From Bacteriovoracaceae bacterium (GTDB lineage: Bacteria; Bdellovibrionota; Bacteriovoracia; Bacteriovoracales; Bacteriovoracaceae): a DNA stretch of 54,388 nucleotides. Where the stretch lies: contig JAHDBN010000009.1 in assembly GCA_020630335.1 (NCBI GenBank), positions 28,836 to 83,223 on the forward strand. Reading direction: 5' to 3'. A program made the position numbers and the translations under genes. A model generated the notes under the pieces. That model did no database searches, had not been told where the DNA came from, and worked only from the letters and a program-made list of their open reading frames with translations. How positions within the stretch are numbered: position 1 is the stretch's first letter; each line of letters opens with the position of its first letter. Below, piece by piece: positions 9,005 to 49,663 of this stretch.

Positions 9005-9994
9005 TTACATATTATTTAATAACATATCTGTAATATACTCAACTAATGCCATATCCATTTCTGTATCAAAAGTTTCAGAAACAGTTGAACCATTTAATAC
9101 TCCTGCAACATGAACAGTATTAAAACTTCCAGTCTCATTAGTCATCACATCAAAGCTTGTATTTGTGAAATCAACATTTAAGTCTCTCGCAAGGACATCT
9201 AAGCTTGTTTCGAAAGCTCTTTCAGCTGTTTCACAATCCTGAGTTTTTTCAATTTTAGCATATCTTGAATATGAAAAAGTTTTAGCTACATGATTTGCAA
9301 TCGTTGCTTTCTTATAACCCATTCTTCTGTTTTTTCTTTTAGCAACTTCAGCATTAGCTTTAGCTGCATTTTTTTCAGATACTTCTAAAAATTCAGGCTT
9401 AATATCACAATTGATATAATCAATCATCTGCTCAAGAGTACAATCTTTCTTTATACCAAAAAGACCTCTTTTTCCTTTAAGTGTCTTACAATCTTTTTTC
9501 ATTTCACTAGTAACAAAAATATAATCTTCGCTACCATTTACTTTAAAATAAGTTACTTCATTGTCTCCAGAAATCCTGATATCAGAAATATTAGATCCAC
9601 CTTCAACAAGTGCTTTGTTTACTGAAGTATTAACACTTTCATTTATAAGAAATTTTCTAAATGAAGTACTATAAGTACTAACCTTGTATAACTTCTTATT
9701 TAAAGCTGAAATTGCTTTATCTGAAACAACATCACTTAAATCCACATAACCATCTTTCTTAGGTGCTGGTTCATCAGTTGATCCATCATCAGTTGATCCA
9801 TCATCAGTTGATCCATCATCAGTTGACCCATCGTCAGTTGATCCATCGTCAGTTGATCCATCGTCAGTTGATCCATCATTTGCCGATACTGGGCTAGTAA
9901 TTTTTTTTCCGTTTGCATCTGAAAGTCTTGCGTTGCTATTACATGCAACAAGAAGAACAGATAAAACTAGAGTTGAAATTAATTTCAAATTCAT
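9005..9994 (-). CDS. Lipoprotein with GSTDD tandem-repeat linker
   Basis: 329 residues from the ATG at 9994, which has a strong AAAGGAG site. A longer frame to 10048 would add 18 polar residues before the signal peptide and is rejected. The lipoprotein signal ends LSVLLVACN, with lipidated Cys near residue 18. Residues about 40-75 are an acidic spacer of GSTDD repeated seven times. The rest is a soluble domain of about 250 residues with four cysteines and no recognised family. The spacer probably holds the domain away from the membrane. Monocistronic, with a terminator at 8958-8981. Confidence 0.75.
   Translation of the reverse strand: MNLKLISTLVLSVLLVACNSNARLSDANGKKITSPVSANDGSTDDGSTDDGSTDDGSTDDGSTDDGSTDDGSTDEPAPKKDGYVDLSDVVSDKAISALNKKLYKVSTYSTSFRKFLINESVNTSVNKALVEGGSNISDIRISGDNEVTYFKVNGSEDYIFVTSEMKKDCKTLKGKRGLFGIKKDCTLEQMIDYINCDIKPEFLEVSEKNAAKANAEVAKRKNRRMGYKKATIANHVAKTFSYSRYAKIEKTQDCETAERAFETSLDVLARDLNVDFTNTSFDVMTNETGSFNTVHVAGVLNGSTVSETFDTEMDMALVEYITDMLLNNM
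9771..9875 (-). repeat. Seven 15-base in-frame tandem repeats
   Basis: Seven contiguous copies of a 15-base unit (plus-strand TCATCAGTTGATCCA, with A/G and T/C variants at two positions) encode the GSTDD spacer of the lipoprotein. Copies 1-3 are identical, copy 4 has one change, and copies 5-7 share a different single change (TCG). This pattern suggests expansion by slippage in two blocks. Confidence 0.97.
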
Positions 9995-10057
9995 GTTCGT
10001 CTCCTTTTCATGAGTAAAGTTTGGAGAACTTATAACACACATTGTCATGCATTTGAC

Positions 10058-10865: not shown

Positions 10866-11459
10866 TTATAGAAGATTTTTTACATACTTATCAGCATCTT
10901 TTTCACTGATAAAAAAGTAGTTATGCTCAATTGTCCCCTTAGGCCCAATAACAATATTCCAAGGAGTTCCACCTGCTCCATACTGGGCAATAACGACTGC
11001 TTGATTATCTTGGGCCATAGGGAAATCAAAACCGTATTCTTTGCGAATTTGATGAAGTGCATCCAAATTATTTTTCTTATGCCCATAGGAAACTGACTGA
11101 ATAGCTAGAAATTGAATATCTTTTCTATTCTTATACTTAGAATAAATCTTCTTAAAAATTTTATGACTCTTAGGACAGCCTGGACAGGTCTTAATAAATA
11201 CATCTATAAAAGTTAGTTTTCCTTTTAAGTCTTTTAACCTCAAATTTGGAATTCTCTCTTTTTTTGAGTTATACCATTCAAGTCCAAAAAAATCTGGAGC
11301 AGGAGAAGTCTTTTTATCTGTATCAGACATGTTTTGAGAAACAGCTGTATTTTGAGAAGGTACAGCAGCTGATGCAATTCGTAGATTTTCTGAGAGTTGT
11401 TCTTTACCTCTAGATTGAGAACAAGAAAAAAATAATACAACAATCGCTAAATACTTCAT
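10866..11459 (-). CDS. TlpA-like thioredoxin-fold lipoprotein
   Basis: 197 residues. The lipoprotein signal is MKYLAIVVLFFSCSQ (Cys at 13). A thioredoxin/AhpC-TSA-type domain fills residues 65-197: LKDLKGKLTFIDVF, the redox motif CPGC near residue 99 and the cis-Pro loop GGTPWNIVIG near residue 168. It would act as a membrane-anchored periplasmic thiol oxidoreductase. The start lies 9 bases after oleD and its AGGAG sits at the oleD stop, so it is probably transcribed with the ole operon. Why a thiol-redox lipoprotein should follow hydrocarbon genes is not evident. Confidence 0.8.
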   Translation of the reverse strand: MKYLAIVVLFFSCSQSRGKEQLSENLRIASAAVPSQNTAVSQNMSDTDKKTSPAPDFFGLEWYNSKKERIPNLRLKDLKGKLTFIDVFIKTCPGCPKSHKIFKKIYSKYKNRKDIQFLAIQSVSYGHKKNNLDALHQIRKEYGFDFPMAQDNQAVVIAQYGAGGTPWNIVIGPKGTIEHNYFFISEKDADKYVKNLL

Positions 11460-11468
11460 AAAGATCTC

Positions 11469-12470
11469 CTAAAGTTCTTGTACATAAGATTTTAGCTCTT
11501 CCAAGCCTTCTTGAGTAGAAATAATTTCTTGGTATCCAAAGTCTTTAATTGCTTTCTCATGAGAAAAATAATGATCTTTAGTTAGCTGTAAGGCAACAAA
11601 TCTAGTCATTAGAGGTTCTGATTGAACACCAAATAAAGAATAAAACTTTTCACTTAGATAACCTAGAACATAAGCTAAGCCAGATGGAACTTTTTTCAAC
11701 TTCACATCTTTAAATTTCAATTTTAAAATTTCTTTTAGAAAATCCCATAAGACAACAGGAGACTTCTGTCCTATAAAATAAGCTTCTCCTCCAAAGGAAG
11801 GAGCTTCCAACATTTTTTTTAAAACTTGTAAATGTGCATGAGCTGCATTTTTCACATGAATAACATCTACTAGGTTTTCTCCATTGCCAATTTGCTTTAA
11901 TTTCGATTTCTTGTATCTTTCAATTAATCTAGGAACTAAATGATTATCTCCATTCCCCCAAATCAAATGTGGTCTAAGAGAAACTGTTTGAAAATCTAAT
12001 CGATGGCTACTTAGTACTAATTTTTCTGCTTTGGCCTTCGACCTAGCATAAGCGGTCAAGTAATTTTCAGGATAAGAAAGGCCCTCATTACCATTAACAA
12101 TAGCATCTTTTCCAAAAACCACGCTTGGAGTAGATGTATAAATAAATTGTTTCACATCATACTTTTGAGAAACCTCTAAAAGATTCTTCGTTCCCTTAAA
12201 GTTTATTTCGTCATAACTCTTCTCACTGCCCCATACTCCAGCTTTTGCTGCTGTATGAATCACAATATCGAATTGATATTTCTCAAACACTTTTTCTATT
12301 TGAGAAGAATTACTAAGATCACAAACAATTTGAGGGAGAATAACATCTTTTTTAATAGATCTAGAAAGTAAAAACACTCGTTCCCACTGGTCTGATTTTA
12401 ATGAAGATGCAATATAAGAACCAAGAAAACCAGTTCCTCCCGTGATGAGGATAGACTTATTTTTCTTCAA
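11469..12470 (-). CDS. oleD: OleD: 2-alkyl-3-ketoalkanoate reductase
   Basis: 333 residues, extended SDR of the 3-beta-hydroxysteroid-dehydrogenase type. The NADPH motif is GGTGFLG at 11-17, the active site is Tyr141/Lys145 in YARSK, and the Ser/Thr partner lies in TSTPSVVFG near 112-120. OleD reduces the beta-keto acid made by OleA to a beta-hydroxy acid. The assignment rests on the fold plus its place directly after oleC. The start is TTG and overlaps the oleC end by 14 bases, so translation is coupled. An isolated copy could only be called an epimerase; the gene context makes the call firm. Confidence 0.88.
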   Translation of the reverse strand: MKKNKSILITGGTGFLGSYIASSLKSDQWERVFLLSRSIKKDVILPQIVCDLSNSSQIEKVFEKYQFDIVIHTAAKAGVWGSEKSYDEINFKGTKNLLEVSQKYDVKQFIYTSTPSVVFGKDAIVNGNEGLSYPENYLTAYARSKAKAEKLVLSSHRLDFQTVSLRPHLIWGNGDNHLVPRLIERYKKSKLKQIGNGENLVDVIHVKNAAHAHLQVLKKMLEAPSFGGEAYFIGQKSPVVLWDFLKEILKLKFKDVKLKKVPSGLAYVLGYLSEKFYSLFGVQSEPLMTRFVALQLTKDHYFSHEKAIKDFGYQEIISTQEGLEELKSYVQEL

Positions 12471-14064
12471 GTGACTTACCTAACAATATTCTATCTATTT
12501 TTATATTATGTCTTGTATCTACAGGAAATGTATCAACAACATAAAAGTTTTTAATTAATTGAACCTTAGGATAGTTTTTGCCAAATACTCGTAATTCTTC
12601 AAAGAGTTCTTCTTTCTCTAAATCGCCCATTGTTTTCTTTTCTTTTACTATAATGGCTACACTCACTTCATCACGAACTTTAACTAAGGCAGATTTTTCA
12701 ATTTTTGGATGAGAATTCAATAACCCTTCTATTTCAATGCTATAAATAGACTCACTTCCTACTTTTAAAACATGGCTAGATCTTCCTAGATACCAAAGAC
12801 GTCCCCATCTATCCTGATAACCAAGATCTCCAATGAAATGATAGAGCTTTCCAGATTTATCTAGCTTCGATTTCTTATTAGCATCTTCATTTTCAAAGTA
12901 TTGTTTAGAAGTCATTTTAGAATTTATATAAATTTCACCAACTTTATACTCTCCGATTTCTGAGTAATCATTCGTATTTCGAATATCTAGATCAACAGAA
13001 GAGTGAAGATAACCTACACACACTCCCTTAGCACTTTGAGTATCTCTAAACGTATCACCAAGAATCATTTCATCTGTAATAACACTTACTGGCAATGACT
13101 CAGTCGCTCCGTAAGGAGTATATACAGTACAATTAGGCAGAGTATCCCTTAAATCTTTAATTAGCTCGTGAGAAATTGGAGCACCAAACATTGCTAATTT
13201 TTTTAAGTTAGGAATTGTTTTCTTTTTCGCTTTTAAATATTTAGCAAGAGATATCCAAATGCTAGGAGATCCATTCGCAAAGCTCACGTTATGTTTTACT
13301 AATTCTGCTGCTAATTTTTTTCCGTTTGTCTCAGCTGGCCTTCTAGCATCAATTGATTCACTTAAATATGTAGTCAAACCAATAGACAAGGAATAAAGAG
13401 CAAATAAAGGAAAACCTGACATATCTCTTTGCTCTGCTGATAAAGAAAAAAGTTCTTTTAATGCTTTCGTTTGTTCTACAAACATCTCCATCGAGTACTC
13501 AACTCCTTTACTAGGACCCGTCGCTCCAGAAGTAAAAAGTATAGCCGCTATATCATTTTTAGAATAAGTATAACTCTCAAACATATTTGACTTATTTTTT
13601 ACGATTTTCTTTAGAGATTTACCTATTAGACCACCATCAACATTGATAATTGTTTTGATGCTAGTAAAAAACTTTCCTTTCATTTTTTGTAAAAGAATTG
13701 CCTTAGAGATTGCAATTAGAGCAGTTGCTTTAGTTTTTTGTATATTTTCTAAAAGTTTATCAATCCCCATTCCGGGATCAATGAATACAGGAGTAGCTCC
13801 AATTTTAAAAAGAGCAAAAACTGTTGCTATTAATTCAATACAAGGAGGTATAAAGACAAGCACTCTATCTTGAGCGTTAATTCCTTCTTCACTAAAAGCA
13901 TTTGCAAAAATATTTATTTTCTTTTCAAGCTCATCAAAAGAGCAAATTTCTTCTTTCGTTTTCCCTAAACCAAGAAAAGCCGTCTGAGATTGGATTATCG
14001 CCGGATGTCCAGCGGAATGTTTAGCATTAAGAGTAATAAAGTCTGCTACATTAGAAATATTCAT
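12457..14064 (-). CDS. oleC: OleC: beta-lactone synthetase
   Basis: 535 residues, ANL (AMP-forming acyl ligase) superfamily. The phosphate loop is ILFTSGATGPSKGV at 175-188, the OleC-typical MFGAP is at 292-296, the adenylate motif is YGATESLPV at 318-326 and GDLGY is at 412-416. OleC activates the beta-hydroxy acid with ATP and closes it to a beta-lactone rather than making a CoA ester. The YGATE(S/A)LPV form and the neighbouring oleB and oleD distinguish it from an ordinary acyl-CoA ligase. The ATG overlaps the oleB stop by 4 bases. Confidence 0.93.
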   Translation of the reverse strand: MNISNVADFITLNAKHSAGHPAIIQSQTAFLGLGKTKEEICSFDELEKKINIFANAFSEEGINAQDRVLVFIPPCIELIATVFALFKIGATPVFIDPGMGIDKLLENIQKTKATALIAISKAILLQKMKGKFFTSIKTIINVDGGLIGKSLKKIVKNKSNMFESYTYSKNDIAAILFTSGATGPSKGVEYSMEMFVEQTKALKELFSLSAEQRDMSGFPLFALYSLSIGLTTYLSESIDARRPAETNGKKLAAELVKHNVSFANGSPSIWISLAKYLKAKKKTIPNLKKLAMFGAPISHELIKDLRDTLPNCTVYTPYGATESLPVSVITDEMILGDTFRDTQSAKGVCVGYLHSSVDLDIRNTNDYSEIGEYKVGEIYINSKMTSKQYFENEDANKKSKLDKSGKLYHFIGDLGYQDRWGRLWYLGRSSHVLKVGSESIYSIEIEGLLNSHPKIEKSALVKVRDEVSVAIIVKEKKTMGDLEKEELFEELRVFGKNYPKVQLIKNFYVVDTFPVDTRHNIKIDRILLGKSLEEK

Positions 14065-14939
14065 TTTAAAAACTCTCTAATTTCTTTGATACAATTTTCA
14101 GTCTCATCTTCTAAGACATAATGATTAGCATTTTCAAAAACTCTACTTTTCGCATGTGGGAAAATATTTTTAATTCTCTCAAAGAACCCTAAGTTAAAAC
14201 AAAAGTCTTTGGCTCCCCATAATAAGAGAACAGGAATCTTCAATTTCCTTGCTTCTTCTTCAACTAGATCTAATGTTTTTCGGCTTGGATGTTTCTCACT
14301 CATTGGAATATCTTTCACGAAATCATCTATTCCTTTTCTTAAACTCGCCTCTCGATATGGGAAAAGATAAGCCTTTTTTTCTTCAGAACTAAATCGTCTT
14401 TGAATTCCCATCACAAAAGATGCTTTCAAAAAACCATTAATTGTTTTATTTAAAAATTTTCCAAGAATAGGTAAGCGACAAAGAGCAATTCTTTTTGGTA
14501 TATCTTCGCTAAAAAAGCATGCTGTATTCATAAGGATTAAATTTTTTAATTTATCTTTAATTCGAATAGCTGTTCCTGTAGCTATCGCTCCGCCCCAATC
14601 ATGTCCAACAAGAGTAACGTTCTCTAGTTTCTTTTCTCGAATAAATTTTTCAACATGTCGAATACGATCTTCTAAACGCCAAAACTTTTCAGATCTAGAC
14701 GAAAGTCCACAGTTTAAATGATCAAGCGAGTAGACTTTAAAATCAGTTGAGAGATCCTTGATTAAATTTCTATAATAATAAGACCACGTTGGGTTCCCAT
14801 GTAATAAAAGAACAACCTTCTCTCCCTCACCCTGCTCTACATAATGCATTTTTTCATTATCAATCTTAAAAAAGTTTTGATTAAATCCTAATGATTCCTC
14901 AAGATCTGCTGACAAAGAATCTAACGTATTTACTGGCAT
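14061..14939 (-). CDS. oleB: OleB: beta-lactone decarboxylase (alpha/beta hydrolase)
   Basis: 292 residues of the haloalkane-dehalogenase-like alpha/beta hydrolase family. The oxyanion region is HGNPTW at 47-52, the nucleophile Asp114 lies in GHDWGG, the probable acid is D245 in WGAKD and the catalytic His273 is in NANHYV. The string SLDHLNCGLSSR near 71 is close to OleB rather than to dehalogenases. OleB opens and decarboxylates the beta-lactone, releasing CO2 and a cis-olefin. It overlaps the end of oleA by 10 bases. Separate oleB and oleC genes are the arrangement found in many Gram-negatives, unlike the fused BC proteins of actinobacteria. Confidence 0.92.
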   Translation of the reverse strand: MPVNTLDSLSADLEESLGFNQNFFKIDNEKMHYVEQGEGEKVVLLLHGNPTWSYYYRNLIKDLSTDFKVYSLDHLNCGLSSRSEKFWRLEDRIRHVEKFIREKKLENVTLVGHDWGGAIATGTAIRIKDKLKNLILMNTACFFSEDIPKRIALCRLPILGKFLNKTINGFLKASFVMGIQRRFSSEEKKAYLFPYREASLRKGIDDFVKDIPMSEKHPSRKTLDLVEEEARKLKIPVLLLWGAKDFCFNLGFFERIKNIFPHAKSRVFENANHYVLEDETENCIKEIREFLK

Positions 14940-15931
14940 GGCACTAACTCCATCATTAAAGTATGTAAGCCACTTCCTATTCCTAAAAGGCCTATACGAT
15001 TATCTTTCGTCACAAACTCAGACTCTAAAGCTTTTGATAAGGCAGTTATAACTGCTGATGATCCAGAATTTCCAAACTCTTCAAAAATAGAATAATCAAG
15101 CCCATCTTTAATCCCTAAAGCATCTAAAAGATGTTTACGATGAGCACTTCCTACTTGATGTAAAATATAATTATCAAATTTTTTATCACTAAATCTTTCA
15201 AAGTTCCTTTTCGCAAGTTCAATACCACTTTTCAATAACTCTTCAGAATTAGTCTCCATCAATAAAGCTCCATCTACCACTCTACCTTCACACAACTTAT
15301 GAGCGGAAGAATCTGATTTAGAATGAATCTCTCCAACTTCCCAAAGTGCACCTTCTGAAGTATCTCCTAGCAACACTGCAGTGCCAGAAGAACCTATCGT
15401 TAAAGAAGCTAGATACTTCTTAAGATCCTTTCTAGATATATCTGTTTCCTCTATGACTCTTATAGTATCTTTTAATAAATCTCTACTATTCTCACCTGAA
15501 GTAATAAGAACGTTTGTCGCATCCCCAGCTTTGATACAACTTTTGGCAACTTTTATAGCATTCATCACTCCTAAGCATGCATTGGATAAATCAAAACTCT
15601 CACAACTATCAGTTAGCTCTAACCCGTCATGAACAAAAGAAGCTGTCGAAGGCTCATCACAGTTTCTACAAACAGATGCGTTGATCAGTAGATCAATTCT
15701 ATGATTATTTTTCTTAAGTATTTTCTTACCAGCTAAAATAGAAATATCACTAGGCCTTATAGGAGAGGACCAAAAACCTCTTCTTTTCACACCTGTAATG
15801 AACTCTAATCTTCCTTGAGTAAGATTTAATTTTTCATAAGTTTTAGAAATCATGGATTCAATAACTTCAGAGGTAAAGTATTCAGGAGGATCAATATGAG
15901 TTATGGCCTTAATATAAACTTTTTTCATCAT
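14930..15931 (-). CDS. oleA: OleA: head-to-head acyl condensing thiolase
   Basis: 333 residues, FabH/thiolase fold. The nucleophile is Cys119 in SNACLGVMNA, the OleA-specific base Glu93 is in CDEPSTAS, His258 is in LHQVGSAH and Asn288 in EFGNSGSSA. These match the Cys/Glu/His/Asn set known for OleA, and the EP.TA motif separates it from FabH. It joins two activated fatty acyl chains by a non-decarboxylative Claisen condensation to a 2-alkyl-3-keto acid. The start overlaps the stop of the FAD oxidoreductase gene. Whether the acyl donors here are CoA or ACP thioesters is open, because an ACP gene lies in the same operon. Confidence 0.93.
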   Translation of the reverse strand: MMKKVYIKAITHIDPPEYFTSEVIESMISKTYEKLNLTQGRLEFITGVKRRGFWSSPIRPSDISILAGKKILKKNNHRIDLLINASVCRNCDEPSTASFVHDGLELTDSCESFDLSNACLGVMNAIKVAKSCIKAGDATNVLITSGENSRDLLKDTIRVIEETDISRKDLKKYLASLTIGSSGTAVLLGDTSEGALWEVGEIHSKSDSSAHKLCEGRVVDGALLMETNSEELLKSGIELAKRNFERFSDKKFDNYILHQVGSAHRKHLLDALGIKDGLDYSIFEEFGNSGSSAVITALSKALESEFVTKDNRIGLLGIGSGLHTLMMELVPCQ

Positions 15932-17328
15932 CGGCCTTTGGGAAATCCATAAAGATTTGCAATCGAAATCCCGCTAAGAATACTTCCCGTTATTCCTAAG
16001 TAACCTTGATCAGTACCGATCAAATGTAAGTTTTTAATTCCTATATTCCCATCTTGAAATTTTTTAGTGGCGCCATAAATAGCTCCACCTATATGAGAAG
16101 TAAACTTCTCAACAGTTAAGGGAGTAAATGTATCAGTAAAAACTAATTCTCTTTTATGATTGGGGTAAAGTTTTTGAACTAAGTTTCTAGCTTTTATTTC
16201 AATTTCTTTTTTAGCTTTCTCATATTCATCTGATTCAAGAGATTTCCAGGAATGATAATTAGCAAGATAAGTAATTCTAATAACACCTTCTTCTCCTTCA
16301 AAGCTCTCATACCCTTCTGGAGAACAAATAATTGCACTTCTTTCATCTATTAAAGTTTCAGGTACTTTGTAGCGAAACTGGTCATCTTCATTATAAAAAC
16401 AAATAGTCGGAAGTTTTTCAGTTAATCTCTCTTTATAAATTAATTGAACCTCTACAAACCCCAGCTTACCTACAGCTTTTTGATCAATGACCTCTCCTAA
16501 AATTTTTTGAGTCTCAGGATAGCCAATAGAAGAAAAAACTTGTTTAGCCTTGATAGACTCTCCATTTGATAACTCTATTAAGTGTTCTTCTTCAATTTTT
16601 CTTATGCGATTAACGGCCACGCCCATTAATTTTACGACTTCTAAAGATTTCAATTTTTCTTGTAAAATTTTAAATAAAGTCCTGATTCCTCCATAAGGCC
16701 TAGAGAAACCTTCCAAGTAAAGTGCTTGAAACATAATACAAAATTGAGAAAAATCAATATCATCTTCCCACGAACTCCCATAATAAAAAACGGGTAAGAA
16801 AATCATTTCTTGTAATTCTTTAGAGCTAATAAATTCTTTTATTTTTTCTCTGCTAGAAACATATTCAGAAGGTTCAGTGGAAACCTTAAAGCTTGCAACA
16901 AGTTCTACTAATCTAAGAAACCCTTCATGATCAGCAGGAAAATATGTTTGTATTTCTGAGCTAAGTAAATCAATTGAATTATTAAATTTTAAAGCTTTAT
17001 TATTAAGGTGAATTGTAGAAAAATTTTGCTCTTGAAGTTTTAACTCATCATAGGGAATTCTTAATTGTCTTAAAATTTTAAGAAGTGGTTTATTTTTAGA
17101 TCCTTTCTTAGCAAAGTTAGTAAGAGCGTGAAGGCCAACATCGAAATATCTGATTCCACCTCTTGAGCCATCAGAGTTTTTTTTCACTCTTTGATAAAAA
17201 GAATTTAATCCACCAATAACCCGGTGTTTCTCAATTATTGCAACCTTAAGTCCAAAGTTTTTTAATCTTAAAGCGCAAGCGATACCACTCATCCCAGCAC
17301 CTATGACGACAGCATCAAAGCTTTTCAT
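15928..17328 (-). CDS. CrtI/carotene-isomerase-like FAD oxidoreductase in the ole operon
   Basis: 466 residues. The N-terminal FAD-binding motif is VVIGAGMSGIACALRL, with GAGMSG at 10-15. A second FAD contact, GIKNLHLIGTDQGYLGITGS, lies near the C-terminus, as in phytoene desaturases and carotenoid cis-trans isomerases. Such enzymes desaturate or isomerise hydrophobic polyene chains at a membrane. No phytoene synthase or other carotenoid gene is nearby, so the substrate is more likely the fatty chain handled by the adjacent ACP, ketosynthase and Ole enzymes (inference). It starts 9 bases after the ACP gene and overlaps oleA. The alternative call is a general amine-oxidase-type flavoprotein. 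Confidence 0.8.
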   Translation of the reverse strand: MKSFDAVVIGAGMSGIACALRLKNFGLKVAIIEKHRVIGGLNSFYQRVKKNSDGSRGGIRYFDVGLHALTNFAKKGSKNKPLLKILRQLRIPYDELKLQEQNFSTIHLNNKALKFNNSIDLLSSEIQTYFPADHEGFLRLVELVASFKVSTEPSEYVSSREKIKEFISSKELQEMIFLPVFYYGSSWEDDIDFSQFCIMFQALYLEGFSRPYGGIRTLFKILQEKLKSLEVVKLMGVAVNRIRKIEEEHLIELSNGESIKAKQVFSSIGYPETQKILGEVIDQKAVGKLGFVEVQLIYKERLTEKLPTICFYNEDDQFRYKVPETLIDERSAIICSPEGYESFEGEEGVIRITYLANYHSWKSLESDEYEKAKKEIEIKARNLVQKLYPNHKRELVFTDTFTPLTVEKFTSHIGGAIYGATKKFQDGNIGIKNLHLIGTDQGYLGITGSILSGISIANLYGFPKGR

Positions 17329-17337
17329 GAATAACTT

Positions 17338-17589
17338 TTAAGCAGATTGAAATTTAGGAGTAAGATAATCCATACAACTTTTTAAGGTTGCTAAGTGAGG
17401 ATAATCTTCTTGAGGAACTTCTATTTTGTATCTCTTTCTAAGCTCCATAACTATATCCAAAAAATCCATAGAATCTAGATCGATTTGTTCTCTTAATGTA
17501 AGGTTATCATCAATCCCACTTACATCCTCATCAGGAGCAATGTCTGTGATAATTTTTAAAACAATGTTTTTTACATCTTGAGCATTCAT
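17338..17589 (-). CDS. Acyl carrier protein dedicated to the ole operon
   Basis: 83 residues, acidic and helical. Ser40 in the LDSMDFLDIV motif is the predicted 4'-phosphopantetheine attachment site. It resembles AcpP in length and charge but has the less common DSMDFLD core rather than the housekeeping DSLDTVE. It therefore looks like a specialised carrier that hands acyl chains to the FabF-type synthase encoded just upstream. It sits between the ketosynthase and FAD-oxidoreductase genes with gaps of 25 and 9 bases. Confidence 0.9.
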   Translation of the reverse strand: MNAQDVKNIVLKIITDIAPDEDVSGIDDNLTLREQIDLDSMDFLDIVMELRKRYKIEVPQEDYPHLATLKSCMDYLTPKFQSA

Positions 17590-17614
17590 ATCTTACCTCT
17601 ATATTTATAAATTC

Positions 17615-18862
17615 TTAGTCTAACTTTTGGACAATTACTACAGAATTAATCCCTAACATCCCAAAAGAATTATTCAAGATTACATCAACTTTCTCAACTT
17701 GTTTAGCTTTGTTTAAGACAAGATTGGAAATTTCACACTCTGGATCCAGATTTTCACAATTTATCCCAGGATGAATCAAAGAATCATCAAAACTAGGGAT
17801 ATTCCCCGCTAATTCTAAAGCTCCAGCAGCTCCCATCGAATGCCCAATATGTCCCTTAGTAAAATTCACATGTGTATTTTTTGAATCTCTAAAAACTTTA
17901 TTTATAGCACTCGCTTCAGAGATATCTCCTGCTCCAGTTCCTGTAGCATGCATATTTACAATATTTACATCTTCTACCTTTAGACCTGCACTTTTTATGG
18001 CTTTTTCAACACACTCAATCTGTCTTTGAGTGTTTGGATTCACATAAGAGCTTGCATCTGAGTTCGTATGATAACCTATAACTTCAGCATAGATCTTCGC
18101 ACCTCTTGCCTTAGCATTTTCTAGGGTTTCTAGTACATAGACGGCCCCACCTTCAGAGATAACTATTCCATCCCTATTTTTATCTAGAGGCTTAATTGAT
18201 TTAGTAGGATCTTGAGGGTTATGAGCAAGTGCGCCTTGAGCAGCAAACCCAGCAAATATACCAAAAGTTTGAGGACTCTCACTTACTCCTCCAGCTAGAG
18301 CATAATCAACTTCTCCAAGTCTTAGCATTTGAAGGCCTTGGATAATGCCCATATTTCCACCAGCACAAGCTGCTCCTATAGTATAGTGAGGCCCTGTAAT
18401 TTTTAAATTAAGAGTTACTTCTCCAGCTGGAGAATTGGCAACTGTTCTAGGGTTATGATGAGGTGTCCAAAGCTTATAATCTAAATCGTTTTGGTGCATC
18501 TGATAAACTTCTTCTTCCGTTTCAACATTACCATGCTCAGTAATTCCTAGGTAAACACCCACTCTATCTTTATCAACATTTTCAAGATCTAGATCAGCAT
18601 CAATTAAAGCTTCATTCGAACAATAAATTGCTATCGCCCCAGCTCTAGTTCCTCTTCTTCTTGATTTTTTAGTTTGATATTTTGTTTCATCAAAATCACA
18701 AAAACCTGCGCTCTGCTCTCCCATATACCTAATATTATTTTGAGTAATTCCTGATTTACCTTCTAAAAGAGCATTTCTAAACTCCATTAAATTATTTCCA
18801 TTAGGAGCAGTTAAGCCTATACCAGTAATTACGATTCTATTGTTTTTGTTTAAACCAGACAT
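17615..18862 (-). CDS. Beta-ketoacyl-ACP synthase II (FabF-type), first gene of the ole operon
   Basis: 415 residues from the ATG at 18862, preferred over a GTG at 18883 because AAAGGGA lies 5 bases upstream and the family start (VITGIGL) follows. The thiolase-fold active site has nucleophile Cys166 (GAACAGGN), His305 (NMHATGTG) and His341 (GHSMGAAG). It elongates acyl-ACP by decarboxylative condensation with malonyl-ACP. Being fixed at the head of an ole operon with its own ACP, it probably makes or extends the chain that OleA condenses; this role is inferred. It is not in a general fab cluster: no fabD, fabG or fabH is in the window. Confidence 0.9.
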   Translation of the reverse strand: MSGLNKNNRIVITGIGLTAPNGNNLMEFRNALLEGKSGITQNNIRYMGEQSAGFCDFDETKYQTKKSRRRGTRAGAIAIYCSNEALIDADLDLENVDKDRVGVYLGITEHGNVETEEEVYQMHQNDLDYKLWTPHHNPRTVANSPAGEVTLNLKITGPHYTIGAACAGGNMGIIQGLQMLRLGEVDYALAGGVSESPQTFGIFAGFAAQGALAHNPQDPTKSIKPLDKNRDGIVISEGGAVYVLETLENAKARGAKIYAEVIGYHTNSDASSYVNPNTQRQIECVEKAIKSAGLKVEDVNIVNMHATGTGAGDISEASAINKVFRDSKNTHVNFTKGHIGHSMGAAGALELAGNIPSFDDSLIHPGINCENLDPECEISNLVLNKAKQVEKVDVILNNSFGMLGINSVVIVQKLD

Positions 18863-18941
18863 TAAATCCCTTTTAAAATCCACATTATTTTAAATTTATA
18901 GATCCAAAAGGCAATGAAATTTAAAGAAAAAGCAATAAATC

Positions 18942-18961
18942 TGGCCCTGATGGCCATTTTT
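18942..18961. other. Small GC hairpin between the ole operon and the histone gene
   Basis: TGGCC (18942-18946) and GGCCA (18952-18956) form a 5-bp inverted repeat followed by TTTTT on the plus strand. It is terminator-like, but no plus-strand gene ends here. It lies in the 18863-19024 divergent promoter region and may insulate the histone gene or act as an operator. Confidence 0.3.
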
Positions 18962-19024
18962 AGAAGATTCTTTGGATAATTTTTATTAGTATTTTGAAAC
19001 AGATAACTAAACAAGGAAGAATAT

Positions 19025-19432
19025 ATGGAAAGTTTAATCGTTGTTTCGAAAGTAAAGAAGCTCATCAAGGAAAGACAAGGGTTTAACACATCGGCATCTT
19101 TTTTTGGTCCATTGAATGAAGATCTAGTGGCATCAATTAATCAAGCGATTGAGCACGCTAAAAAAATGAATAGAAAAACTGTCATGGGAAGAGATTTTAA
19201 TTTTTACAGAGAAGTAGAAAAAGTTGATACAATTTTAGTGGTTTCTTCAAAAATCAAAAAGTTTATCAAATCTACAAGCGGGCTGAATACTTCCGCTCAA
19301 GTTATGGAACAACTCTCTATCAAGGTAGAAGAACTTTGTTTAAATGCCATCAAGAGTGCTGTTGAAAGTAAAAGAAAAACAGTAATGGATAAAGATTTCA
19401 AACCTTTGATTGCAAATAACTCAGTTTACTAA
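19025..19432 (+). CDS. Bacterial histone-fold doublet protein
   Basis: 135 residues made of two similar histone-fold halves. Repeat 1 (about 6-58) begins VVSKVKKLIK, continues GFNTSA and ends RKTVMGRDF. Repeat 2 (about 72-125) begins VVSSKIKKFIK, continues GLNTSA and ends RKTVMDKDF. The RKTV..DF end matches the loop-2/helix-3 region of archaeal and bacterial histones (GRKTV..DI). A fused pair would fold as an intramolecular pseudodimer. Histones are known to be major chromatin proteins in Bdellovibrio; doublet forms are also known in bacteria. It should bind or wrap DNA. SD AGGAAG precedes the ATG. Divergent from the ole operon, with its own terminator. Confidence 0.85.
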   Translation: MESLIVVSKVKKLIKERQGFNTSASFFGPLNEDLVASINQAIEHAKKMNRKTVMGRDFNFYREVEKVDTILVVSSKIKKFIKSTSGLNTSAQVMEQLSIKVEELCLNAIKSAVESKRKTVMDKDFKPLIANNSVY

Positions 19433-19440
19433 AATCCCCT

Positions 19441-19480
19441 ATACCTGAGAATATCAGTAAGTTTTCTTGAGGTATTTTAT
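19441..19480 (+). terminator. Intrinsic terminator of the histone gene
   Basis: ATACCT (19441-19446), followed by GAGAA, pairs with TTCTTGAGGTAT ending at 19475 with one bulge. The loop is about 12 bases and is followed by TTTTATT. It lies 9 bases after the histone stop, so the histone is probably a single-gene transcript. Confidence 0.6.
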
Positions 19481-19531
19481 TAGCTATCATCCTAGTTAGG
19501 TATTAATTTTGTATTTAGCTAGGAGCTAGGC

Positions 19532-21220
19532 TTGAAAAACATTCTTTTAATTTCTTTTTTATATTTTACTTCTTGTACACATATCAAACCTATTTACACT
19601 ACAGATGGTGAGAAGGTTCAAGAACAAGTATTCCAACAGCAAGCTCAAAAAACTAGAATTACTAGTCATGCAAAGCATGTGCAAAGTCATGTAAATATCG
19701 AACAAACAAATGCTGAAGCTAATATTTATCAAGAAGAAGATATTAATTATCAACCAGTTACTCCACCAAACTATACTCCTGGAAATCCTGAAACCTTAAC
19801 GGTTGAAATGGAGAACATAGAGACAGTTGAAAATAAGCAACCTGAAATGACTCAAACACAAGATCATGAAGTTTTAAGTTCTGAAGCTGCAAGTATTTAT
19901 GAAAACTTGGAGATAGCAAATCAACACCTTGATGAAGAAACACCTCAGAGAAATACTAATGCCAAAGTATTAGAAGATGATGAGGACTTTAATGCTTCAG
20001 CAAAACCTCAAGAAATCTTAGAAGTCACTCAACCTTCACCTCAAGTAATCGTCACTCAAGATCAAGCATCTACTACTTCATATGTCGAATCAGAATTCTT
20101 AAGTTATGTTAACGAAGAAAGAAAAAATAAATGGAGAGACTACTTTACAGGTAGTTCTAAAGAAAGATTTGAAAGATTTCTAGCCAATGGATCGAAGTAT
20201 CAAGACTTTGTCATGAGAACATTTATTGAAGAAGGATTGCCAAAAGAATTGTATTATGTGGGAATTGCTGAAAGTGGATACCAAATGAAAGCAAGAAGTT
20301 CAGCCAGTGCAGTCGGGCCGTGGCAATTTATTAAGGGAGCTGGAAAAGAGTATGGTTTGCGCATCAATTCTTATGTTGATGAAAGAAGAAATATTTACAA
20401 AGCAACTAAAGCTGCAGCTTTATACTTTAAAGATCTTTATAACATTTTTGGCTCTTGGGAGTTAGCGCTAAGTGCTTATAATGCAGGACCTTATAGAATT
20501 ATTGCTCTTATTAGAAAATATAATACAAGAGATTATTGGGAATTAATTAAAACTAAAACATTCCCACGAGAAACAGCAGAGTATGTTCCTAAAATTGCAG
20601 CGATTATGGAGCTAGCGAGCAATCCCGAAGCAAATGGTTTTCAAGTTAATTATTTTAGTGATCAAACGAATAAATCATCTCTTATTCCTGTAAGATATTC
20701 TCTATCTCTTGATACTATCGCAAAGAAACTCTCTCTTAGTACAAAAGAGCTAAAAGATCTAAATCCAGAACTTCTAAAAAGTTACACTCCTTTTAGAAAG
20801 AAAACTGCTTATATGATAAGAGTTCCTAATAGAACACTTGAAATGCAATCATCTATTTCTTCTCTTGAACACTACAAAGGAAGTAATCCTTATAGAAGAA
20901 GCTACCAAGTTGCTAAAAAAACAAAATCAGGTATTCATAAAGTAAGAAAAGGAGAGACCTTATCCTCGATTGCCATGAGATATAAGACTTCTTCTATGAA
21001 ACTTATGAAAATTAATAAGTTTAAAAACCCTGTGATTTTTATTGGGCAAAAATTAAAAGTACCAAGTTCCTCTTCTAAGTCTAAAACTCACTTAGTAAAA
21101 AATGGTGAAAATCTAACTTTGATAGCCAAAAAATTTAAAACCACTCCTAAAGCAATTATGAAGAAAAACTCTCTTGAAAATGGAAAGATTTTTCCAGGGC
21201 AAAAGCTTATAGTTAGATAA
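19532..21220 (+). CDS. mltD: MltD-like lytic transglycosylase lipoprotein with two LysM domains
   Basis: 562 residues from a TTG start with AGGAG about 6 bases upstream. Lipoprotein signal with Cys15 (YFTSC). Residues 20-190 are a long acidic, Gln/Glu/Pro-rich unstructured region. The SLT domain spans about 215-360, with catalytic Glu247 in GIAESGYQMK, then AVGPWQF and LSAYNAGPY. Two LysM peptidoglycan-binding domains follow near 463-508 (HKVRKGETLSSIAMRYK) and 518-561 (HLVKNGENLTLIAKKFK). It cleaves glycan strands to 1,6-anhydro products at the cell wall. The N-terminal linker is unusually long compared with E. coli MltD. Confidence 0.92.
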   Translation: MKNILLISFLYFTSCTHIKPIYTTDGEKVQEQVFQQQAQKTRITSHAKHVQSHVNIEQTNAEANIYQEEDINYQPVTPPNYTPGNPETLTVEMENIETVENKQPEMTQTQDHEVLSSEAASIYENLEIANQHLDEETPQRNTNAKVLEDDEDFNASAKPQEILEVTQPSPQVIVTQDQASTTSYVESEFLSYVNEERKNKWRDYFTGSSKERFERFLANGSKYQDFVMRTFIEEGLPKELYYVGIAESGYQMKARSSASAVGPWQFIKGAGKEYGLRINSYVDERRNIYKATKAAALYFKDLYNIFGSWELALSAYNAGPYRIIALIRKYNTRDYWELIKTKTFPRETAEYVPKIAAIMELASNPEANGFQVNYFSDQTNKSSLIPVRYSLSLDTIAKKLSLSTKELKDLNPELLKSYTPFRKKTAYMIRVPNRTLEMQSSISSLEHYKGSNPYRRSYQVAKKTKSGIHKVRKGETLSSIAMRYKTSSMKLMKINKFKNPVIFIGQKLKVPSSSSKSKTHLVKNGENLTLIAKKFKTTPKAIMKKNSLENGKIFPGQKLIVR

Positions 21221-46915: not shown

Positions 46916-49663
46916 TTAATTACACGGTGGAGCAGGTTCTATTGTTTCACAGTTTGGATTTGTAAACGCCTGCTCTTTAGTTAGTACTCCAAGAATACAT
47001 TTTCTAAATTGAATTAAATCTAAAGCACTATGCTTGCCATCACCATTAACATCATATTCTTTCCCTTCAATCTTAGGATTTATTTGAAGCAAAGTTTTTT
47101 GTGATAAAACAAGATCAATTGTAGAAAGAGTATCTGAATCATTATAATCGTAGTCACAGTTTACTAAGTCTTGCTTTTTAGTAACCTTTACTGAAACAAT
47201 AGCGCTATTATTAGAGCTGGCTTCAGCAGTGTCTGGTTCAATTAATGTTTTTAAATAATCAGTTTCTGAAACTTCATAAAAAATCATCTCATCAATATTA
47301 GGATTTTTATTTTTACATACAATTTCAAGTCGGGCCTCTTCATTTACTCCTAAACTAAAAGACCAAATATCATGGTCAGCCCAAGCTCCATTACCTGCAA
47401 CGACTGATCCTTTTGAAACAGAGTGACTTATGTATTCTGTTTCTGCTGGACATCTTTCTTGTAGCAATTTATAACTTGCAAAGTTTCCTGAATCAGGTCC
47501 CAAATTCTTAAATTTTACAGTGAATTTTATATCCTCATCTAATTCTACTTCCTCTAAGTCAGACTCTACTAATACTGCCAAATCTGATTTTTTAACTAAA
47601 ACTACAGAGTTTCCAATTATCGTGGTAAAAGATCCGGAATTATTAGACAAGACAGGATCAACTAGTTCCGTTTCTATATCTTCTTTGAACACATCGAACA
47701 CAAGCTTATCTCCAATATCTCCTGAAATAATTTTACAAGAAACTCTAAACTTTGCTCTTACTCCTGGTAATAATGAATCAAGTCCTGTTCGAAAAGTTGA
47801 ACTACCAAAAGCTCCTCCTTGAGTAATAGCTACCTTCTCTATTGGTTCTACTATAGAGAAAGCTGTTTTTTCAGGACAGTTGGCATTTACAAAAGTATTC
47901 GTTGAAATTGCAGGCCCTTTATTCAGAACCTCTACAAAGAAACTAATATGCTCTCCAACAGGTGCTTGAACTTTATCTCCATAAACTTTAATCTCAAGAT
48001 CATGTGTCGTAGGAGGTAGTTCATTGCAAGTTAGAGTTGAAAGTTGAAACTCTAATTCTTGCTCTCTAAATATTTGATCTTGCTCTAAAAATTTACTCAT
48101 CGAAATATCAGAGCTTCCTTTATCTACATGTATAAAGGATGTCTCTTGTCCTAATCCTTGGAATTTAAACTCTGGGATTCCAAGAATTGCAGCTGCCGAA
48201 GGTAAAGTTTCAAAAACAGGCGGAGAAATTGAATGTTGATCTGAAAAATGTGCTTTATGACAAGAAACACATGTATTGATTGAGAAGTTTCGTATCATGG
48301 CCGTATGATGGGCTTTTCTCGCACCTGAAGGCTGAATATCAGGTCGAATAATCCCGAGAGGTATTAACTCATCTACCCAACTAGCTCCAAAACCAAAATC
48401 ATTTTGCCAAGCTCTTAATTCACTTGGTAATTCATAATCCTCGCCAACAAGTGAGGCTATCGTTTCAAAATTTCCTTGGATATAGTTTTTTATAAGATTT
48501 TTATCACCAGGCACAATACCATTTTTTATAATTCCATTTGATACATTACTAAAATTATCTTTAGGTGTTTTTTCTAAACGATGTCTTTTCAAAAAACCAT
48601 CATTAGTGACAACATAAGAAAAAAGACTCCATGGGGGCGCTAAGAAATCATTAACTCTAACATTTTTTAGAGCAGCTCCTCCCTTCCATTGTTCACTTTC
48701 TTCATACTTAGCTCTAGTTGACCTACGTAAAAGCCCTAGGAGCGTTGACCTATAACTATGTTTAGATAGGGATGTATCCTGTTTATAACAACTCAACTTT
48801 CCTACTGTTTTAACCCATTGCTCTCTACTCCACGAACCCAAGCTGCTAATACTACTCGCATTACCCGCAACATGAAAGGCCTCTGTATCTACAGGCATTC
48901 CATATTCTAAAATTGTATAAGATCTTCTAGTTTGAGTGTCTAAATTTTTATCTTTATCTACAAATTTATATAGCAATCGAATCTGTCCAGCACTAATGAC
49001 TTTACCCGTAGCATCTGTTTCAAATAACTCGGGCCTAATCATAATTGCCATTAATCTGTACGGAGCTCCTCTTTGAGTTAGATTACCACTTGAATCTTTT
49101 TCCCATTCATTTCTGATTGCATCTGAAATCTTAGTTGGAGGAGTTCCTGGTGCTGATCCAAATGGAGGCGTTATTGTTTTGGGCCTAATATCATCCAATT
49201 CATTACTCAAAAGAGTTTGTCCATGAACACCTTCGAATCCTTTTAAATAAGTTTCAAATAAGTTTTGCACGTTAGGATCATCATCTGGAAGATTTACCTT
49301 TAAGTGCAAACTTGCCAACACCCGTCCAAAACGTAAATGTCCTCCAACCCAAATTTTATTTGGACTAGTTTCATCTAATCTTTTCTTAGGATCAAACTCT
49401 TCAATTAAAGCTGGATCAGAAATGATTAATGATTTATCAATAGCAATATCTGCGACAATTCCCTCTAACTCAACTGGCACATTACCTGAATATCCACCAC
49501 CAGAACCTCCTCCATCTGTTCCTATACCATTGCAATAACAATTCTCTTCAACAAATACTTCATTGTGCTTAGTATCTGATGATTTCTTCAAATCAGTTTT
49601 AGATGAATTGCTTTCAGAACAGCTAAAAAATACAAAAATTGATAAGACTAAAATCTTAATCAT
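46916..49663 (-). CDS. Large lipoprotein: haem motif, DUF11-type repeats, dockerin-like end
   Basis: 915 residues. Lipoprotein signal with Cys15 (VFFSC), then a Gly-rich linker (GGGSGGGYSG). The first half (about 65-560) has no named domain but carries a c-type haem motif CVSCH at 465-469. Two DUF11-like beta repeats follow (about 570-690 and 710-830). The C-terminal segment has two EF-hand/dockerin-like loops (DYDYNDSDTLSTIDLVLSQ and YDVNGDGKHSALDLIQFRK), which would bind calcium. It may be a surface redox or adhesion protein. This domain mix is unusual. TAGGAG site before the ATG. Confidence 0.7.
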   Translation of the reverse strand: MIKILVLSIFVFFSCSESNSSKTDLKKSSDTKHNEVFVEENCYCNGIGTDGGGSGGGYSGNVPVELEGIVADIAIDKSLIISDPALIEEFDPKKRLDETSPNKIWVGGHLRFGRVLASLHLKVNLPDDDPNVQNLFETYLKGFEGVHGQTLLSNELDDIRPKTITPPFGSAPGTPPTKISDAIRNEWEKDSSGNLTQRGAPYRLMAIMIRPELFETDATGKVISAGQIRLLYKFVDKDKNLDTQTRRSYTILEYGMPVDTEAFHVAGNASSISSLGSWSREQWVKTVGKLSCYKQDTSLSKHSYRSTLLGLLRRSTRAKYEESEQWKGGAALKNVRVNDFLAPPWSLFSYVVTNDGFLKRHRLEKTPKDNFSNVSNGIIKNGIVPGDKNLIKNYIQGNFETIASLVGEDYELPSELRAWQNDFGFGASWVDELIPLGIIRPDIQPSGARKAHHTAMIRNFSINTCVSCHKAHFSDQHSISPPVFETLPSAAAILGIPEFKFQGLGQETSFIHVDKGSSDISMSKFLEQDQIFREQELEFQLSTLTCNELPPTTHDLEIKVYGDKVQAPVGEHISFFVEVLNKGPAISTNTFVNANCPEKTAFSIVEPIEKVAITQGGAFGSSTFRTGLDSLLPGVRAKFRVSCKIISGDIGDKLVFDVFKEDIETELVDPVLSNNSGSFTTIIGNSVVLVKKSDLAVLVESDLEEVELDEDIKFTVKFKNLGPDSGNFASYKLLQERCPAETEYISHSVSKGSVVAGNGAWADHDIWSFSLGVNEEARLEIVCKNKNPNIDEMIFYEVSETDYLKTLIEPDTAEASSNNSAIVSVKVTKKQDLVNCDYDYNDSDTLSTIDLVLSQKTLLQINPKIEGKEYDVNGDGKHSALDLIQFRKCILGVLTKEQAFTNPNCETIEPAPPCN

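What the first reader, a model, noticed from the sequence alone, without database searches (positions are those of the whole stretch)
10866..18862. Complete oleABCD pathway embedded in an eight-gene operon
OleA, OleB, OleC and OleD are all present with their catalytic residues and in order, each overlapping the next. The same strand continues upstream with a FabF-type ketosynthase, an ACP and a CrtI-like flavoprotein, and downstream with a TlpA-like lipoprotein. The family set predicts long-chain cis-olefins via a beta-lactone. The fixed extra genes suggest a specialised product (possibly polyunsaturated or beta-lactone) rather than the usual olefin from housekeeping acyl-CoA. I am not aware of this exact eight-gene arrangement being described, but I could not search.
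Basis: partly seen in the sequence, partly recalled or inferred. Interest (0 to 1): 0.82.

Follow-up and report, generated by a model that had tools for sequence, protein, structure and literature searches.

The report
Dedicated polyunsaturated-chain supply for OleABCD
A predatory-type bacterium carries its olefin-making genes together with a private set of fatty-acid-building genes, which across several phyla replaces the giant enzyme known to make polyunsaturated chains, so it probably marks an unrecognised, oxygen-independent way of making polyunsaturated hydrocarbons.

Summary
Confirmed: OleA, OleB, OleC and OleD lie in order behind FabF, ACP and a CrtI-like flavoprotein (Crt1). Crt1 directly precedes OleA in all 40 family loci examined, and FabF and ACP precede Crt1 wherever the contig reaches. 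The TlpA-like gene is shared only with the same-genus genome. A second operon, outside the window but adjacent in most relatives examined, encodes Crt2, a FabG-type ketoreductase, a FabZ-type dehydratase and a FabI-type enoyl reductase. Together these genes make a discrete fatty-acid synthase beside the housekeeping one, plus two CrtI-like flavoproteins and OleABCD. The FabF-ACP-Crt1 module recurs in Planctomycetota, Verrucomicrobiota, Nitrospina and Desulfobacterota. Among 112 OleA-positive genomes from two phyla, 65 have Crt1, 44 have the Pfa synthase marker PfaD, none has both and 3 have neither. This is best explained by the module replacing Pfa as supplier of polyunsaturated acyl-ACP to OleA, giving C31:9-type hydrocarbons. 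It would answer the 2009 puzzle of how Desulfotalea psychrophila makes C31:9 without a PUFA synthase. Caveats: no lipid data exist for this family, the exclusivity rests on few switches on the OleA tree, and the flavoprotein chemistry is inferred.

The parts
17615..18862 (-). FabF-type ketosynthase dedicated to this pathway; catalytic Cys166/His305/Lys336/His341; gatekeeper loop SFGMLGIN instead of SFGFGGTN
   Evidence: Pfam/NCBIfam; invariant residues in A3 and A6; PDB alignment; about 33% identical to own housekeeping FabF but 58-71% to module FabFs of other taxa
17338..17589 (-). Dedicated acyl carrier protein with DSMD phosphopantetheine site
   Evidence: PF00550, NCBIfam ACP models; about 25% identical to housekeeping ACP, 60-76% to module ACPs in relatives
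15928..17328 (-). Crt1: CrtI-like FAD flavoprotein, proposed acyl-ACP double-bond isomerase or oxygen-independent desaturase
   Evidence: PF01593 and weak CrtI/carotenoid-isomerase models; AlphaFold pLDDT 91.5, nearest fold gamma-carotenoid desaturase 4rep; co-occurs with OleA
14930..15931 (-). OleA, head-to-head Claisen condensing thiolase
   Evidence: PRK09258 over cut-off, X. campestris OleA structures; invariant catalytic residues
14061..14939 (-). OleB, beta-lactone decarboxylase (haloalkane-dehalogenase-like)
   Evidence: PF00561 and haloalkane dehalogenase models; position between OleA and OleC in relatives
12457..14064 (-). OleC, olefin beta-lactone synthetase (AMP-binding)
   Evidence: NF045785 OlefBLtnSynShew 329 bits, below its curated cut-off of 850; PRK09274 443 bits; motif FTSGATGPSKG
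11469..12470 (-). OleD, 2-alkyl-3-oxoalkanoate reductase (SDR)
   Evidence: NF042423 299 bits, below its curated cut-off of 580; GGTGFLG and YxxxK motifs
10866..11459 (-). TlpA-like thioredoxin-fold lipoprotein; probably co-transcribed but genus-specific, not part of the conserved module
   Evidence: AhpC-TSA/Redoxin; found only in same-genus L023 among 40 loci

Best explanation
The window holds one half of a two-operon pathway. FabF, ACP and Crt1 here, with Crt2, a FabG-type ketoreductase, a FabZ-type dehydratase and a FabI-type enoyl reductase encoded on another contig of the same genome (G000:C17, about 17338-20760, minus strand), form a discrete type II synthase that builds a polyunsaturated acyl chain on its own ACP. 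OleA takes two such chains directly from the ACP and joins them head to head; OleD reduces the product, OleC closes the beta-lactone and OleB removes CO2, giving a long polyunsaturated olefin of the C31:9 kind. Crt1 and Crt2 most likely provide what the two FabA-like dehydratase/isomerase domains provide in the Pfa synthase: moving or making cis double bonds on the growing acyl-ACP by flavin chemistry without oxygen. Shown here: gene content, conserved linkage, co-occurrence with OleA, mutual exclusion with PfaD, a housekeeping synthase kept apart. Inferred: polyunsaturation of the product, ACP-to-OleA transfer, and the flavoprotein reaction.
For: (1) Crt1 directly before OleA in 40/40 family loci, with ACP and FabF before it wherever the contig extends; Crt1 and OleA present or absent together in 58 of 59 family genomes. 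(2) Second operon Crt2-KR-DH-ER in this genome and in every relative region inspected, convergent or collinear with ole; all 11 genes in one line in L056. One Desulfobacterota cluster, L156, reads FabF-ACP-Crt1-Crt2-KR-DH-ER-OleA-x-OleB-OleC-OleD. (3) 37 of 40 genomes from other taxa picked by Crt1 alone also have a true OleA; in Planctomycetota 51/51 Crt1 genomes have OleA against 27/144 others. (4) Among OleA genomes PfaD is in 0/51 with Crt1 and 25/27 without (Planctomycetota), and 0/14 and 19/20 (Desulfobacterota); PfaD over cut-off in 0/59 family genomes; combined Fisher p 5e-28. (5) Complete housekeeping FabH-FabD-ACP-FabF cluster elsewhere, only about 33% (FabF) and 25% (ACP) identical. 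(6) Literature: OleA draws 16:4 acyl-ACP from Pfa to give 31:9 (PMC6463001); G. bemidjiensis, with Pfa and ole, makes C31:9 (PMC3098273); D. psychrophila makes C31:8/C31:9 without a PUFA synthase and carries phytoene-dehydrogenase-like genes DP2405/DP2406 with FabF paralogues (PMC2649909).
Against: No lipid analysis of any member of this family was found. On the OleA gene tree the Crt1/Pfa label needs only 2 changes and gives only 1-3 independent contrasts, so the Fisher values overstate independence. Two Desulfobacterota genomes have Crt1 without OleA and three OleA genomes have neither Crt1 nor PfaD. Crt1 and Crt2 are far below the curated cut-offs of all carotenoid models, and two anammox CrtI homologues failed to show CrtI activity (PMC4790861), so the chemistry is unproven. 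Whether D. psychrophila DP2405/DP2406 are Crt1/Crt2 orthologues could not be checked by sequence.
Confidence: 0.66

Rival explanations
1. The extra synthase genes supply a specialised but not polyunsaturated acyl-ACP (for example a fixed chain length or a monounsaturated chain), and the olefin is an ordinary long-chain one; the flavoproteins set one double bond or act as reductases.
For: A full KS/KR/DH/ER set is also what ordinary chain extension needs; no lipid data exist for the family.
Against: Replacement of PfaD by the module among OleA genomes in two phyla; two conserved CrtI-like flavoproteins have no role in ordinary chain extension; FabF carries an invariant altered gatekeeper loop.
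Confidence: 0.17
2. The product is a conjugated polyene hydrocarbon: FabF/KR/DH cycles without enoyl reduction, with Crt1/Crt2 acting as carotenoid-like desaturases or cis-trans isomerases on a conjugated chain.
For: The flavoproteins belong to a family that acts on conjugated polyenes (4rep, CrtI); KR resembles a flexirubin reductase model.
Against: A FabI-type enoyl reductase travels with the module, which is not needed for a fully conjugated chain; no chain-length-factor partner or aryl starter gene in the conserved cluster; exclusion with Pfa points to the Pfa product type.
Confidence: 0.13
3. The pathway makes a cyclised, ladderane-like or otherwise rearranged lipid, with the Ole genes acting afterwards.
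For: Kuenenia candidate ladderane clusters combine ACP, FabZ, FabF and phytoene-desaturase-like proteins (PMC2649909, PMC4790861).
Against: No radical SAM, methyltransferase or catalytically dead FabF is in the conserved set here; D. psychrophila, with similar genes, makes acyclic C31:8/C31:9 and no ladderanes (PMC2649909).
Confidence: 0.05
4. The end product is a beta-lactone or long-chain ketone rather than an olefin.
For: OleACD alone gives beta-lactones in some actinobacteria (PMC7064751); OleA alone gives ketones (PMC6463001).
Against: OleB is intact and conserved in all 40 family loci.
Confidence: 0.05

Closest known systems
Shewanella / Photobacterium pfaA-E plus oleABCD pathway to hentriacontanonaene (C31:9)
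   Same: OleABCD of the same type (OleC and OleD score best with the Shewanella models); a dedicated polyunsaturated acyl-ACP source feeding OleA; KS, ACP, KR, DH and ER functions all present
   Different: Here the functions are single small proteins, with two CrtI-like flavoproteins and FabZ-type instead of FabA-like dehydratase; no PfaD homologue over cut-off in 59 family genomes
Anammox candidate ladderane gene clusters (Kuenenia kuste3603-3608 and kuste3335-3352) and syntenic clusters of Desulfotalea psychrophila
   Same: FabF, ACP, FabZ, FabG and phytoene-desaturase-like flavoproteins combined; hypothesis of oxygen-independent polyunsaturation
   Different: No radical SAM enzymes, methyltransferase, glycosyltransferase or inactive FabF in the conserved set; here the flavoproteins are tied to OleABCD. 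Orthology to the Kuenenia or D. psychrophila proteins was not tested by sequence
Canonical oleABCD of Xanthomonas and Stenotrophomonas
   Same: Four Ole enzymes, same reaction order, conserved OleA catalytic residues
   Different: There OleA draws on housekeeping acyl chains; no linked FabF-ACP-Crt. In the tree rooted on the X. campestris OleA, the Crt-type and Pfa-type OleAs lie together on the other side
CrtI / carotenoid desaturase family (4rep gamma-carotene desaturase, 4dgk CrtI)
   Same: Fold and FAD-binding motifs of Crt1 and Crt2
   Different: About 16-18% identity, far below the curated cut-offs of every carotenoid model; no carotenoid genes in the conserved cluster

Membership tests
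OleABCD head-to-head olefin pathway | OleA with Cys/His/Asn and the partner-subunit Glu | tested here: met
   Glu93, Cys119, His258, Asn288 invariant in 26 sequences; PRK09258 over cut-off
OleABCD head-to-head olefin pathway | OleB, OleC and OleD present and linked | tested here: met
   the best NCBIfam ole models match over full length but below the curated equivalog cut-offs, as expected for a divergent lineage
OleABCD head-to-head olefin pathway | Olefin product in the organism | not testable with these tools
   no lipid data; an H. marinus OleA was active in an in vivo screen (PMC7064751) and an H. marinus genome (L075) carries this cluster
Pfa polyunsaturated fatty acid synthase (pfaA-E) | PfaD-type enoyl reductase over curated cut-off | tested here: not met
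   0 of 59 family genomes
Pfa polyunsaturated fatty acid synthase (pfaA-E) | Multidomain ketosynthase protein PfaA/PfaC | tested here: not met
   own genome has only two FabF-type ketosynthases, both single-domain; the other two PF00109 hits are weak partial matches (about 45 residues), probably thiolases
Type II (discrete) fatty acid synthase | Separate KS, ACP, KR, DH and ER proteins | tested here: met
   window FabF and ACP plus KR, DH and ER on G000:C17; assignments on homologues
Anammox ladderane candidate cluster | Radical SAM enzymes and inactive FabF paralogues in the cluster | tested here: not met
   neighbourhood clusters shared by many loci are FabF, ACP, Crt1, Crt2, KR, DH, ER and Ole; FabF Cys166 invariant
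Carotenoid biosynthesis (CrtI/CrtISO) | Match over curated cut-off to a carotenoid desaturase or isomerase model | tested here: not met
   Crt1 55 bits and Crt2 (L156 homologue) 114 bits against a cut-off of 587
oleACD beta-lactone pathway | oleB absent | tested here: not met
   oleB at 14061-14939 and in 40/40 family loci

The most novel reading that the evidence does not exclude
A third natural route to polyunsaturated acyl chains, besides oxygen-dependent desaturases and the Pfa megasynthase: a discrete type II synthase in which two CrtI-like flavoproteins place cis double bonds on acyl-ACP without oxygen. It is spread over at least five phyla and predates or parallels the ladderane toolkit of anammox bacteria.
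Probability: 0.5. Interest if true: 0.9.

Novelty: new variant of a known kind. Interest (0 to 1): 0.78.

Why it matters
C31:9 hydrocarbons are known from bacteria with the Pfa synthase, yet Desulfotalea psychrophila makes them without one, which has stood as an unexplained anaerobic polyunsaturation since 2009 (PMC2649909). The module found here gives a concrete, short gene list for that route, cultivable organisms in which to test it (Halobacteriovorax, Bacteriovorax stolpii, Bythopirellula), and a compact alternative to a very large megasynthase for engineering. It also gives functional company to the CrtI-like and FabF genes proposed, but never shown, to act in ladderane synthesis. The same lineages (Planctomycetes, Verrucomicrobia, Nitrospina, Deltaproteobacteria) were reported as the main ole carriers in a stratified, partly anoxic lake (PMC10176705), so the products may matter to aquatic hydrocarbon budgets.

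Tried and rejected
Considered and rejected: beta-lactone product (OleB intact); TlpA as part of the unit (one genus only); carotenoid pathway (models far below cut-off, no carotenoid genes in the cluster); Pfa-dependent supply in the same genome (no PfaD, no PfaA). The key 2010 paper on the spread of ole genes (AEM.00436-10) is not held, and searches for prior description of FabF-ACP-Crt with ole found none in the open-licence library. The sign test on independent pairs had too few contrasts to be informative, and the AU test does not reject a single clade for Crt-type OleA (p 0.29). The promoter scan found no more sites than shuffles (29 against 33.1), so it says nothing on transcript boundaries. 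D. psychrophila and Kuenenia sequences could not be named among the anonymous genomes. One apparent exception to the exclusion, G065 (Candidatus Synoicihabitans palmerolidicus, L085), has PfaD-like genes in many copies; from general knowledge these belong to its repeated palmerolide trans-AT polyketide clusters.
Full report
The observation. Pfam and NCBIfam identify FabF, ACP, a flavin amine-oxidase/CrtI-like protein, OleA, an alpha/beta hydrolase (OleB), an AMP-binding olefin beta-lactone synthetase (OleC), a 2-alkyl-3-oxoalkanoate reductase (OleD) and a TlpA/ResA-like protein. The OleA matches the X. campestris OleA crystal structures end to end at E 2e-45, and its catalytic residues are invariant in the family. 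Crt1 to OleD overlap one another; the other spacings are 9-25 bases. The FabF start is the ATG at 18862.

Conservation in the family. The host genome (2.36 Mb, 39 contigs) belongs to a family whose named members in the public genome collection are mostly labelled Bacteriovoracaceae/Halobacteriovoraceae. In 40 OleA loci of family members, Crt1 is directly before OleA in every one, and ACP and FabF precede it wherever the contig extends; OleB follows in all. TlpA is found only in the one same-genus locus. Across 59 family genomes Crt1 and OleA occur together in 45, both are missing in 13, and Crt1 occurs without OleA once (G033); OleA never occurs alone.

A second operon. Clustering of neighbouring genes showed further partners: a second CrtI-like protein (Crt2) followed by a FabG-type ketoreductase, a FabZ-type dehydratase and a FabI-type enoyl reductase. 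In the window's own genome this set lies on another contig (G000:C17, about 17338-20760, minus strand; L210). In the same-genus genome and in every other family region inspected it lies near OleD, usually convergent, and in L056 all eleven genes form one line. In L156 (Desulfobacterota) the order is FabF-ACP-Crt1-Crt2-KR-DH-ER-OleA-x-OleB-OleC-OleD. The genome keeps an ordinary FabH-FabD-ACP-FabF cluster on C24 whose FabF and ACP are only about 33% and 25% identical to the window copies, while module FabFs of other taxa are 58-71% identical to it. The module is thus an extra, dedicated synthase.

Spread. A scan of named genomes with the Crt1 profile found the module in Planctomycetota, Verrucomicrobiota (Opitutales and relatives), Lentisphaera, Nitrospina and Deltaproteobacteria including Smithella, often with ole genes in other arrangements. 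Of 40 such genomes outside the family, chosen by Crt1 alone, 37 hold a true OleA. The Smithella-type clusters nest inside the Bacteriovoracia in the OleA tree, with the seven genes in the same order, which indicates transfer of the whole block.

Mutual exclusion with the Pfa synthase. In 195 Planctomycetota genomes 78 have OleA and 51 have Crt1, and all 51 are among the 78. PfaD, the marker enoyl reductase of Pfa synthases, is over its cut-off in 0 of those 51 and in 25 of the other 27. In 297 Desulfobacterota genomes 34 have OleA, 14 of them with Crt1; PfaD is in 0 of 14 and 19 of 20. Together: 65 Crt1, 44 PfaD, none with both, 3 with neither (Fisher p 5e-28). These counts are not independent: on the OleA tree the Crt1/Pfa label needs only two changes and few independent contrasts exist. 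The sound reading is that there are OleA lineages partnered with Pfa and OleA lineages partnered with this module, each crossing phylum borders with its partner. No genome of the host family has PfaD (0/59), and the host has no multidomain ketosynthase.

Mechanism. In Shewanella OleA takes a 16:4 acyl group from the ACP of Pfa and the product is C31:9 (PMC6463001). G. bemidjiensis, with Pfa and ole, also makes C31:9 (PMC3098273). D. psychrophila makes C31:8 and C31:9 without any PUFA synthase but has FabF paralogues and phytoene-dehydrogenase-like genes, two of which (DP2405, DP2406) bear neighbouring numbers (PMC2649909). The simplest explanation is that the KS, ACP, KR, DH and ER of this module, with Crt1 and Crt2, do as separate proteins what Pfa does, and hand the chain on the dedicated ACP to OleA. 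Pfa uses two FabA-like domains to place cis double bonds (general knowledge of that system); here the only dehydratase is FabZ-type, so Crt1 and Crt2 are the natural candidates for isomerisation or oxygen-independent desaturation. Their predicted structures are confident (pLDDT 91.5 for the window's Crt1 and 86.4 for a relative's Crt2) and nearest to a carotenoid desaturase. FabF keeps its catalytic residues but has an invariant SFGM(L)GIN loop in place of the usual SFGFGGTN gatekeeper loop, compatible with an unusual acyl substrate. The polyunsaturation and the flavoprotein reaction are inference.

Novelty. Rattray and colleagues proposed in 2009 that FabF- and phytoene-dehydrogenase-containing clusters might encode anaerobic polyunsaturation (PMC2649909), and Javidpour and colleagues tested anammox genes without success (PMC4790861). 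I found no description, in the papers held, of the link of such a module to oleABCD, of its spread over several phyla, or of its exclusion with Pfa; the main 2010 survey of ole genes was not available. I therefore rate it a new variant of a known kind (ole pathway with a different precursor supply), with a fair chance that the supply route itself is new.

Noticed in passing
window 19025-19432 (+): A 135-aa protein with two histone-fold-like halves (archaeal histone model, E 5e-7) is divergently transcribed next to FabF; a homologue sits in the same place in about ten family loci (for example L023, L024, L025, L036, L045).
   Followed up: partly
L072, L075, L077, L079, L083, L087, L089: A 212-253-aa protein that looks like a GbsR/MarR-type regulator (by eye, not scanned) lies directly upstream of FabF, same strand, in Halobacteriovorax-type loci (cluster c16); a candidate regulator of the operon, absent in the window's lineage.
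   Followed up: no
G085 (L116) and G299: Two Desulfobacterota genomes with Crt1 but no OleA; in L116 FabF-Crt1-Crt2-KR-ER are still together, so the module may have a use without Ole.
   Followed up: no
L064, L065, L067, L148: Smithella-type and other deltaproteobacterial genomes carry the seven-gene block in the same order, nested inside Bacteriovoracia in the OleA tree: probable transfer of the whole block between phyla.
   Followed up: partly
L085 (Candidatus Synoicihabitans palmerolidicus): The only Crt1 genome with PfaD-type genes; they occur in about nine places, probably the repeated palmerolide polyketide clusters rather than a PUFA synthase.
   Followed up: partly
window 9005-10048 (-): Predicted lipoprotein with a run of TDDGS repeats; a relative (32-33% identity) lies downstream of TlpA in the same-genus locus L023.
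   Followed up: no
window 46916-49663 (-): A 915-aa protein with DUF11 and a dockerin type I match, unusual outside cellulosome-bearing bacteria.
   Followed up: no
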